Below, piece after piece: positions 47,172 through 49,771 of a stretch of DNA of 64,000 nucleotides. The DNA is taken from positions 1,950,001 through 2,014,000 of the forward strand of contig NC_022792.1 in the NCBI RefSeq assembly GCF_000504085.1. Direction: 5' to 3'. The notes under the pieces are model-generated. The model did not search any database and was not told where the DNA came from. It was given only the letters and a program-made list of their open reading frames with translations. This DNA comes from Pseudothermotoga elfii DSM 9442 = NBRC 107921 (lineage in GTDB: Bacteria; Thermotogota; Thermotogae; Thermotogales; DSM-5069). A program made the translations under genes and the position numbers. The stretch's first letter is position 1. Every line of letters starts with the position of its first letter.

Positions 47172-48266
47172 TCAGCCCCCCATAATCTTTGATACATATT
47201 CGAGATATTGTTTATCCTTTTCTTCGCTCCAAACAAAATTCTTTTTGCACACTCGAAGATTGCTCAAAATCCTGTCATAATCATCATACGCTTTCAGAAT
47301 TTTTTCAACCGATGATTCAACATCCCTGGGTTCTATAACAACACCCACTCCAAACCTCTCTACTATTTTAACCATGGAGACAAAAGATCTTCTAACAATA
47401 ACAGGTGTTCCAGCAGCTATAGAATCAAATAATTTGTTTGGCATGGAGAATTCATAATTCTTATAATCCCTGCTTTTTTCATTGCCATAGGAAATCAATG
47501 AAAATGAAGCTCTGGATAACTGTTCCATCATTTCATCGTAAGGCAAGAACGGTACGTATTCATACGGGATATCCTTAAAGAGATCTGACTTTAAACCTAT
47601 TACTTTAAATCTGAAGCCACTATCTATCAATTTTCTGAGTATTTCTTTTTCGTAGAACAGTTCCCTGCTGTCTTTGCCTACAAGGACGATTTCTTTGCTT
47701 TTTGCATTTGACTCAATTTCCATAAGAGCCATGTTGGGTAGAATAAAAAACTCTTTCTGAATACCACATCGGTCAAAGACATACATGGCTATATCTTCAG
47801 AAATACAGATAACACCATCTGATAATCTTATAGAAGTTGAAAACTCCTTCCAAATTAAAGACTTAACAGGACTAAAAATTGCATATTTTCCCATGAATTG
47901 CTCTGGAATAATTTCATGGATTTCGAAAAATATTTTCTTACCCAACTGCTTCAGTCTTTTTATCATTCCAGATCCTGTAAAAGGCAAATAATGAAAATAC
48001 ACCACATCCGGATTGACCTCCAGAATCCTATTAAACAGCCTTTCATCAAAATTCTTCCACTTTTTGAACCATTTCAGAATATTCCTCGATGGAGGTAGCT
48101 TTTCAAACTCAATGAGTTCTATATCTGTATCATTCAATTTTTTCATATCGCAGCTTCCATAATATTGGTAATAAACTTTCCCCAACTTGCTCAAATTCAA
48201 TGCGCTTTTCAAAGTTCTTTTATCACCGCACGGATGTTCATAACCAACTATGAATATTTTCATCAT
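47172..48266 (-). CDS. GT-B (GT4-like) glycosyltransferase
   Basis: The 364-residue protein has a GT-B fold pattern: N-terminal IFIVGYEHPCGDKRTLKSALNL, the linker DGVICISEDIAMYVFDRCGI, and C-terminal FSMPNKLFDSIAAGTPVIVR, which is the acceptor/donor-binding region of GT4 enzymes. Donor sugar unknown. Its ATG overlaps the stop of the IscB-like remnant (ATGA), and its own Shine-Dalgarno is poorly placed (about 16 bases away), so translation may depend on reading of the remnant frame. It is directly followed by the GT2 gene. Confidence 0.88.
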   Translation of the reverse strand: MMKIFIVGYEHPCGDKRTLKSALNLSKLGKVYYQYYGSCDMKKLNDTDIELIEFEKLPPSRNILKWFKKWKNFDERLFNRILEVNPDVVYFHYLPFTGSGMIKRLKQLGKKIFFEIHEIIPEQFMGKYAIFSPVKSLIWKEFSTSIRLSDGVICISEDIAMYVFDRCGIQKEFFILPNMALMEIESNAKSKEIVLVGKDSRELFYEKEILRKLIDSGFRFKVIGLKSDLFKDIPYEYVPFLPYDEMMEQLSRASFSLISYGNEKSRDYKNYEFSMPNKLFDSIAAGTPVIVRRSFVSMVKIVERFGVGVVIEPRDVESSVEKILKAYDDYDRILSNLRVCKKNFVWSEEKDKQYLEYVSKIMGG

Positions 48267-48549
48267 AAACCAGCGCAGGAAACTCCACCTTCTTTAAGAT
48301 GAAGAAAAGTGCGCTGATTCCTCCTTTCCAATATTAACGTCTTTGCTCTTTCAATAACCTTTAAGTCTTGATATTTTGCTGATGAGTGTATTTTTTCCCC
48401 ACTCAATGTACGTATATCAAAATACCCAGAACTCAAACCATAAATTGTGCCAATTTGATTTTTGTACCTCACTTTATCAAACCTTCTATGAATACCTTTC
48501 TTGCCAGATAATTCAGATTTATACCCTGCTCTCCATAAACAATATTCTC
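48263..48549 (-). pseudogene. Decayed C-terminal remnant of an IscB-like (RRXRR/HNH) protein
   Basis: Between two glycosyltransferase genes an open frame encodes RRFDKVRYKNQIGTIYGLSS, then GYFDIRTLSGEKIHSSAKY and a C-terminal LKVIERAKTLILERRNQ. By recall this matches the extreme C-terminal region of IscB/RRXRR-HNH proteins (FDKV-Y-G-x-FGRRSSGYFD-R-LDGTKI-ASA-YK-LKLLE-KTLLIERR). The RuvC, HNH and bridge regions are absent. A possible start is GTG 48472 (69 residues), and the frame is open up to the upstream gene's stop. Whether the remnant is translated is unknown. No intact mobile-element end or guide RNA is recognisable. Confidence 0.55.
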
Positions 48550-49731
48550 TTACATCGAAAAACCCTTTTTGAGCTCCTTCCTGATATTGTTTGCCGTTTG
48601 CCCTATCGTTTCCAAATATAATTTGTAATACAACCTGGCAGTATTTTCTAAGGTGAAGTTCACATAGTCTTCCTGATTAAAAGAAATCACCTGTTCGAGA
48701 TAATACTCATAATGATCCATTATTTCTTTTATTGCCATTTTTATGGATTCTATGCTTTTTGGATCACATCCAATACCAACTTCTTTTTCGAAAAGGCCAT
48801 CAACCCCCACTCCCTTCGAATATATTACTGGCCGATACTGCGACAGAGCCTCTATGTAAACCAGGCCGAAGGTTTCTCTGACACTGCACATTATAAGAGA
48901 GTGAGATTCCTTTATTTTCTGATAAACTTGATCATTATCAAGTTTACCCAGAAATTTCACATGATTTTGTAAACCAAGATCATAAACTATATCTATCAGC
49001 TGCTTTTCCATAGGACCATCACCTATTATTTTAAATTCCAGCTCGTTCCCTTCGCAAATTAACTCTTTTACAGCAATAATTGTCCTTTTGAGATTTTTCA
49101 GCTTTACAAGCCTGCCGACAAAAATCAACTGGAACTTTCTTGCATCAGGTTTTTTAAATGATGAATTTTCAAACCTTTCTTTCTCTATCCCGCTCGGTAT
49201 TACTCTCGTCTTGGCATCGTCTTTTATTCTGAGAAGTTTTAGAAATCTCGATCTAAGAGCTTCACTCATAGAAATCACAGAACTCGCCTGATCGTATATT
49301 TTTCTTGCCAGGATTCTTAGATGTGGATAAAATAATAATTGCTCACATACATCTGTAGCAGTTATGCTCACAATTAAAGGTTTGCCAAGGGATTTCGATA
49401 ATCTATAAGCTATGTATCCGTCAGATATGAAAGAATGTGCGTGAATCAAATCGCAATCCGGAGGAGCATATTTGAAAATCTTTTTGGCAGAAAGACACAA
49501 TTTAAGGTCTATAAGCAAACCATAAGGCAATCCCCAAACAGGAACTACGTGCTCTTGTATGTGATTTCTTTTAAAAATGTATTCTCCTTTTCCTGAAAAT
49601 AAACGTTTCACAGGTATGATAACTGTTTGTTCTATACCGTACATACTCAGCTCCGATATGATCTTTCTGATCACAGGATTATCTTTGAGTATTTCATTGT
49701 TATAAGTATTGGTAATGTGAAGAACTTTCAT
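48550..49731 (-). CDS. Family 4 glycosyltransferase
   Basis: The 393-residue GT-B enzyme has N-terminal VLHITNTYNNEILKDNPV, LIHAHSFISDGYIAYRL, the linker SVISMSEALRSRF, FVGRLVKLKNLKRTI and the EX7E motif in RETFGLVYIEALSQYRPVIYS. It retains nucleotide-sugar transfer to an acceptor in envelope polysaccharide synthesis. I start at ATG 49731 behind AAGGTGGG. It is the first of the three glycosyltransferases in this operon and is divergent from tRNA-Ser. Confidence 0.92.
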   Translation of the reverse strand: MKVLHITNTYNNEILKDNPVIRKIISELSMYGIEQTVIIPVKRLFSGKGEYIFKRNHIQEHVVPVWGLPYGLLIDLKLCLSAKKIFKYAPPDCDLIHAHSFISDGYIAYRLSKSLGKPLIVSITATDVCEQLLFYPHLRILARKIYDQASSVISMSEALRSRFLKLLRIKDDAKTRVIPSGIEKERFENSSFKKPDARKFQLIFVGRLVKLKNLKRTIIAVKELICEGNELEFKIIGDGPMEKQLIDIVYDLGLQNHVKFLGKLDNDQVYQKIKESHSLIMCSVRETFGLVYIEALSQYRPVIYSKGVGVDGLFEKEVGIGCDPKSIESIKMAIKEIMDHYEYYLEQVISFNQEDYVNFTLENTARLYYKLYLETIGQTANNIRKELKKGFSM

Positions 49732-49742
49732 ATAAGCCCACC

Positions 49743-49771
49743 TTGAAAAAATACTCTTATTCAAGTATAAT
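49743..49771 (+). promoter_or_regulatory. Promoter of tRNA-Ser and probably fba
   Basis: TTGAAA (49743-49748), exactly 17 bases, TATAAT (49766-49771), ending 8 bases before the tRNA. No other promoter is visible before fba. Confidence 0.88.

What the first reader, a model, noticed from the sequence alone, without database searches (positions are those of the whole stretch)
48263..48549. IscB-like (RRXRR/HNH) remnant wedged between glycosyltransferase genes
The frame reads FDKVRYKNQ...SSGYFDIRTLSGEKIHSSAKY...LERAKTLILERR, matching from memory the C-terminal end of IscB-type proteins, ancestors of Cas9 in IS200/IS605-related elements. Everything upstream (RuvC, HNH, guide-RNA region) is gone, marking past insertion of an OMEGA element in a polysaccharide locus.
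Basis: partly seen in the sequence, partly recalled or inferred. Interest (0 to 1): 0.65.

Follow-up and report, generated by a model that had tools for sequence, protein, structure and literature searches.

The report
IscB remnant before glycosyltransferase start codon
The sequence is a broken piece of a mobile element that once encoded the Cas9-like enzyme IscB, and its surviving end sits exactly at the start of the next gene, where it probably now serves as that gene's ribosome landing site.

Summary
The IscB remnant is real. Its frame runs from about 48610 down to 48263 on the minus strand, overlaps the last ~20 codons of the upstream glycosyltransferase, and is 75% identical to an IscB of a related genome. 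It keeps the start of HNH and the C-terminal domain; the rest, and the guide RNA, are gone. Another copy in this genome has the same internal-deletion junction. The genome holds seven HEARO (omega) RNA loci; its only full-length iscB is frame-broken.

The surviving right end abuts the next glycosyltransferase's start codon. This is general: of 91 right ends mapped by eye, 54 abut an ATG opening an ORF of at least 80 aa. The host Shine-Dalgarno lies left of the element in 36 of 44 such sites and 0 of 8 others. The right end itself carries a Shine-Dalgarno, then a hairpin, then the ATG: 55 of 66 distinct right ends reach -7 kcal/mol, against 64 of 318 control stretches. An ATAAA-flanked family lacks it.

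Best reading: these elements insert between Shine-Dalgarno and ATG and bring a hairpin-bridged replacement, which the window remnant probably still provides. Translation is untested.

The parts
48264..48610 (-). iscB element remnant, 5'-truncated; left edge approximate
   Evidence: NF040563 match from about 48610; homology to L017/L018/L019; alignment to full IscBs
48498..48610 (-). retained piece of iscB around the start of HNH; out of frame it supplies the last ~20 codons of the upstream glycosyltransferase ORF
   Evidence: junction with the C-terminal piece lies at about 48492-48498
48264..48497 (-). retained IscB C-terminal domain and tail (FDKVRYKNQ...ERRNQRTFLHLKEGGVSCAGL); the stop TGA (48263-48265) overlaps the start codons
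48320..48329 (-). GGAAAGGAGG, candidate Shine-Dalgarno in the ERR codons
   Evidence: sequence; anti-SD duplex -11.6 kcal/mol in the window copy; unpaired in the predicted fold except its last base
48271..48316 (-). subterminal hairpin, arms CAGCGCA / TGCGCTG, bridging Shine-Dalgarno and ATG
   Evidence: fold of 48350-48240, -29.7 kcal/mol, z -2.85; same geometry in relatives
48259..48263 (-). ATGAA flank at the right end: native start codon of the downstream gene and presumed target-adjacent motif (a further in-frame ATG at 48264-48266 comes from the element)
   Evidence: own-genome copies all end in ATGATGAA; empty cinA and cobT sites
47172..48266 (-). downstream GT4-type glycosyltransferase that starts at the element's right end
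   Evidence: Pfam PF13439 E 4.5e-10
48550..49764 (-). upstream GT4-type glycosyltransferase whose 3' end runs into the remnant
   Evidence: PF00534 E 5e-27

Best explanation
An IscB/HEARO (OMEGA) element with an internal iscB deletion inserted directly upstream of the start codon (ATGAA) of a glycosyltransferase gene. A later deletion removed its guide-RNA end and the N-terminal half of iscB. The right end stayed. Elements of this group insert between a gene's Shine-Dalgarno and its ATG. Their right end carries a substitute: a Shine-Dalgarno (typically GAAAGGAGG, within or just after the iscB tail), then a hairpin of roughly 40-65 nt, then a few bases, then the host ATG. Folding of the hairpin brings the Shine-Dalgarno to a normal distance, so the host gene is still translated. 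In the window this right end is probably the ribosome-binding site of the glycosyltransferase at 47172-48266. Shown here: the iscB origin, the shared deletion, the position at the start codon, and the recurrence of host Shine-Dalgarno | element with its own Shine-Dalgarno and hairpin | ATG. Inferred: that ribosomes use it, that the window insertion followed the same course (its left flank is lost), and that this explains retention.
For: Origin. Start-codon position: 5 of 7 own-genome right ends abut a gene; 54 of 91 mapped right ends abut an ATG opening an ORF of at least 80 aa, against 1228 of 5813 ATG[AG] flank sites, or 239 of 5813 at start-like positions; 9 of 9 scanned downstream proteins align to family models from residues 1-8. 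Split of Shine-Dalgarno from ATG: empty cinA and cobT sites; left flank at -5 kcal/mol or better in 36 of 44 gene-start sites, 0 of 8 others, 17% of 1949 controls. Replacement site: 64 of 88 at -7 or better at the hairpin foot against 4.2% of 4455 control windows; 55 of 66 distinct right ends against 64 of 318 control stretches. Arg codons AGG-AGG where AGA predominates in most of the same frames. The sequence is kept also where the iscB stop comes before or at it. The ATAAA-flanked G060 family has a similar hairpin without it. Window fold leaves most of the Shine-Dalgarno and both ATGs unpaired at the hairpin foot.
Against: No expression data. Right ends were placed by eye at an ATG, so the ATGA flank is partly by construction, and related elements are not independent. 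11 of 66 distinct right ends lack a strong Shine-Dalgarno. 37 of 91 right ends do not abut a long ORF. The essential-gene argument failed: gltX in G072 and purH in G095 have second copies. The window's own empty site was not found. With all pairs of the 11-bp window stem closed there is almost no spacer, so the outer A-U and G-U pairs must open.
Confidence: 0.6

Rival explanations
1. Plain dead remnant: an IscB element inserted, decayed by deletions, and its tail remains by chance; the downstream gene is translated weakly or from a site not recognised here.
For: The remnant lacks catalytic parts and guide RNA; insertions elsewhere in the same genome (L018, L019) abut no gene.
Against: The right end (Shine-Dalgarno, hairpin, ATG) is intact while the rest is lost, and the same arrangement recurs at many gene starts.
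Confidence: 0.2
2. Translational coupling: ribosomes translate the iscB frame, or what is left of it, stop at the TGA that overlaps the ATG, and re-initiate on the host gene. The element keeps an open frame to its right end for that purpose.
For: TTATGATGAA overlap of iscB stop and host start in six of the seven own-genome right ends, with a one-base variant in L017; short elements L021-L023 and L075 keep a 28-33 codon frame from the iscB start to that stop; all seven internal-deletion classes I examined are in frame at the junction; a GTG with AGAAGG upstream could start the window frame at 48472 (sequence).
Against: In other lineages the iscB stop lies tens of bases before the ATG, at or before the Shine-Dalgarno; L071, L079 and L168 have broken frames and L149/L162 have lost the iscB start codon, yet all abut genes.
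Confidence: 0.15
3. The GGAGG and hairpin are kept only as DNA signals for transposition, and their resemblance to a ribosome-binding site is incidental.
For: IS200/IS605 ends carry hairpins needed for transposition (recalled). The conserved stretch is also part of the iscB coding frame in most elements.
Against: The ATAAA-flanked G060 family and the L081-L083 family have right ends without that sequence; on the presumed transposed strand the sequence lies on the far side of the hairpin from the target (recalled model, inference).
Confidence: 0.2

Closest known systems
IscB, RNA-guided OMEGA endonuclease (NCBIfam NF040563)
   Same: The retained pieces align to IscB, 75% identical to the G070 protein.
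   Different: N-terminal part, RuvC parts and most of HNH are missing; no guide RNA in the window.
HEARO element (HEARO RNA RF02033 with its HNH ORF)
   Same: Right end, hairpin and ATGA flank as in HEARO elements of the same genome.
   Different: The HEARO RNA itself is deleted in the window copy. That HEARO elements lie before ATGA or GTGA may already be stated in Weinberg et al. 2009 (recalled; not held).
Miniature non-autonomous IS200/IS605-type elements
   Same: Internal deletions leave only the ends; three ~340-bp copies in this genome.
   Different: Here the retained left end is a guide RNA, and the right end carries a Shine-Dalgarno.
Hairpin-bridged ribosome-binding sites such as phage T4 gene 38 (recalled)
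   Same: Shine-Dalgarno and AUG brought together across a stem-loop.
   Different: Here the module belongs to a transposable element and recurs at many genes; function is predicted, not shown.

Membership tests
IscB | sequence match to the family | tested here: met
   NF040563 E 1e-6, below the whole-protein cut-off as expected for a fragment; 75% identity to an IscB
IscB | N-terminal PLMP part and RuvC catalytic parts | tested here: not met
   alignment rows empty for the window outside the two retained pieces
IscB | complete HNH domain | tested here: not met
   only its start is retained; the HHI region is deleted
IscB | C-terminal TAM-interacting domain | tested here: met
   retained from FDKV to the tail; the name of the domain is from PMC9581776 on IsrB (passages)
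OMEGA (IscB/HEARO) element | adjacent HEARO / omega RNA | tested here: not met
   none in the window at the gathering score; present in seven other loci of the genome
OMEGA (IscB/HEARO) element | family-specific right end | tested here: met
   85-95% identity to right ends of the other own-genome copies
Start-codon-inserting IscB element (as described here) | right end abuts an ATGA gene start, host Shine-Dalgarno on the left | tested here: inconclusive
   right side met in the window; left side deleted there. Met in relatives: 36 of 44
Hairpin-bridged ribosome-binding site | Shine-Dalgarno, hairpin, start codon in this order | tested here: met
Hairpin-bridged ribosome-binding site | initiation depends on the hairpin | not testable with these tools
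   needs a reporter or ribosome profiling

The most novel reading that the evidence does not exclude
IscB/OMEGA transposons of many phyla are start-codon insertors whose target motif is the start codon itself (ATGA). They split the host Shine-Dalgarno from its ATG, take the host 5' leader as the omega RNA guide, and repair host translation with a mobile hairpin-bridged Shine-Dalgarno at their right end. Short omega-RNA-only copies, and even truncated remnants like this one, then live on as ribosome-binding sites of host genes.
Probability: 0.5. Interest if true: 0.78.

Novelty: new variant of a known kind. Interest (0 to 1): 0.6.

Why it matters
If right, it explains how RNA-guided OMEGA elements can sit in front of working genes without silencing them, gives the IscB target motif a biological meaning (a start codon), and offers a directly testable case of a transposon that carries a replacement translation start. 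It also warns that apparent iscB remnants in front of genes may be working leaders. The ATGA/GTGA target of HEARO elements may already be in Weinberg et al. 2009 (recalled; not held), so the novelty rests mainly on the Shine-Dalgarno plus hairpin.

Tried and rejected
Pfam and PDB sequence searches of the remnant gave nothing useful. A DNA search of 40 relatives (41 genomes with the own one) found no orthologous glycosyltransferase site, so the window's own empty site could not be shown. The mini-ORF and coupling idea was my first reading; it was demoted because the iscB stop precedes the Shine-Dalgarno in several lineages and some short elements lost the iscB start codon. The argument from essential genes was tested and dropped: gltX in G072 and purH in G095 both have second copies. 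Ten paper searches (listings seen) found no statement that IscB elements sit between Shine-Dalgarno and start codon. That is limited to the held library: Weinberg 2009, Altae-Tran 2021 and Kapitonov 2016 are not held. Papers seen as passages only: PMC9755519, PMC9581776, PMC13180657.

Rows dropped: of 73 HEARO loci of Thermotogota read I set right ends in 33; the rest belong to other families, are cut by contig ends, or were unclear. Of 80 loci I set right ends in 57. With the window that makes 91. One search found no stem in 3 of 91 and scored 88; its stem finder also missed the evident GAAAGGAGG in some rows (for example L169, L172, L183). For left flanks 52 elements were scored. The 20 distant loci sent to Rfam were chosen from those that seemed to abut a gene; 19 were used, L235 being cut at its 5' end.

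Full report
WHAT IS THERE. The quoted peptide lies on the minus strand in the frame 48676-48263; translating 48549-48263 from its first base gives another frame. NCBIfam's IscB model matches residues 23-77 of that frame at E 1e-6, well below its curated cut-off (28 against 175 bits). The match starts near 48610, inside the 3' end of the upstream glycosyltransferase ORF (48550-49764), so the last ~20 codons of that ORF are out-of-frame iscB sequence. Aligned with full IscBs from related genomes, the window frame is 75% identical to the IscB of G070 and consists of two pieces: about 40 residues at the start of the HNH region, and the C-terminal domain with its tail. No guide RNA is found in the window.

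RELATIVES IN THE SAME GENOME. The window is C1:1950001-2014000 of a 2.17-Mb single-contig genome; it looks like a Pseudothermotoga (my impression; no call names it). The genome holds seven HEARO RNA loci over the Rfam cut-off. One carries a full-length element (L018) whose iscB is broken near the C-terminus by a stop and a one-base insertion. Two carry internally deleted iscB (L017, L019). Three are elements of about 340 bp with HEARO RNA and right end but only a few iscB codons (L021, L022, L023). One (L068) has a HEARO RNA but no right end that I recognised. One Y1 transposase over the cut-off lies beside a diverged iscB fragment. The window copy shares L017's deletion junction. Either an already deleted element was copied, or the two share it by conversion.

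THE RIGHT END AND THE START CODON. In the seven own-genome copies with a right end, the window included, homology stops at ...GATGAA. In five of these seven (window, L017, L021, L022, L023) the ATG opens a gene of 218 codons or more; in L018 and L019 it does not. Empty sites show what was interrupted. In three other genomes cinA has a Shine-Dalgarno a few bases before ATGAAA, and the own-genome copy has the element between the two. The cobT site behind a cobalamin riboswitch shows the same against relatives.

HOW GENERAL. I mapped right ends by eye in 91 elements: 33 of 73 Thermotogota HEARO loci read, 57 of 80 loci of one scan of genome contigs (Firmicutes, Methanobrevibacter, Spirochaetes and others), and the window. 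In 54 of 91 the abutting ATG opens an ORF of at least 80 aa. The same test gives 1228 of 5813 ATG[AG] sites in flanking DNA, or 239 of 5813 if a start-like position is required. Nine downstream proteins scanned (LacI-type, CobT, CinA, GltX, PurH, NadD, GatB, RapZ, RimO) all align to family models from residues 1-8, so the ATG is at or very near the native start. A Shine-Dalgarno of -5 kcal/mol or better sits in the last 18 bases left of the element in 36 of 44 gene-start sites and 0 of 8 others, against 17% of 1949 control windows.

THE REPLACEMENT SITE. Just before the right-end hairpin lies GAAAGGAGG or a variant. Of 66 distinct right ends, 55 have a site of -7 kcal/mol or better in the zone 36-100 bases before the ATG, against 64 of 318 equal stretches further up the elements; perfect AGGAGG occurs in 35 of 66 against 5 of 318. 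In one search, 64 of 88 had -7 or better at the hairpin foot, against 4.2% of 4455 control windows. The codons are mostly Glu-AGG-AGG, although AGA predominates among the other Arg codons of most of these frames. In several lineages the iscB stop comes before or directly at this sequence (L141, L145, L173, L178, L183, L184, L220, L221), so it is not simply conserved protein. G060 elements flanked by (G/A)ATAAA have a similar hairpin but no such sequence: 14 scored, 12 of them at 0.9 kcal/mol and two at -5.4 and -4.2, where the stem finder chose another stem. The L081-L083 family also lacks a strong one (-3.4 to -6.0). NTAAA is a reported IscB target motif (PMC13180657, passages) and NTGA an IsrB one (PMC9581776, passages). 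In the window the predicted RNA fold leaves GGAAAGGAG and AUGAUG unpaired at the two sides of one hairpin foot (z -2.85).

MECHANISM. The most economical reading: these elements insert between Shine-Dalgarno and ATG because the ATG is part of their target motif, and bring a hairpin-bridged Shine-Dalgarno that keeps the gene translated. The window remnant has lost nearly all else but this end, which may be why it remains. Position, sequences and statistics are shown; ribosome use is inferred. Translational coupling from the iscB frame is a serious alternative or addition: stop and start overlap in the window, and all seven deletion classes examined keep frame at the junction. Against it stand elements whose iscB stop lies well upstream, or whose frame or start codon is lost while the gene is still abutted.

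LIMITS. Right ends were placed by eye at an ATG, and many elements are related, so the binomial p-values overstate independence. Two candidate essential genes have second copies. The key older papers were not available, so start-codon placement may already be known.

Noticed in passing
L023 (G000:C1:639317 and leftwards): The cinA promoter-like TATAAT and Shine-Dalgarno lie just left of the HEARO RNA, so the omega RNA guide would be the cinA 5' leader and the host promoter would drive the omega RNA.
   Followed up: partly
L022:1877-2313 (G000:C1:1317608): A HEARO RNA sits behind a cobalamin riboswitch and before cobT, so an omega RNA may be under riboswitch control.
   Followed up: partly
L017/window, L019, L021-L023, L075, L149/L162, L156, L168: All seven classes of internal iscB deletion examined are in frame at the junction, although some later lost the start codon or frame. 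Unexplained.
   Followed up: partly
G000:C1:1481024-1481994 (L020): A Y1 transposase stands divergently beside a diverged iscB fragment; no HEARO RNA was found there at E 0.1.
   Followed up: no
G060 (L084-L099): Sixteen HEARO loci of one genome were read; most carry the same ~211-aa N-terminally deleted iscB, as if a non-autonomous copy had multiplied.
   Followed up: no
L075 (G058); L149 and L162 (G075): HEARO-only short elements of about 340 bp arose in other Thermotogota genomes too, again directly before genes.
   Followed up: partly
G041 L081-L083: A second IscB subfamily in the same genome is followed by GGAGGTGA-like sequence, as if it targeted the Shine-Dalgarno itself.
   Followed up: no
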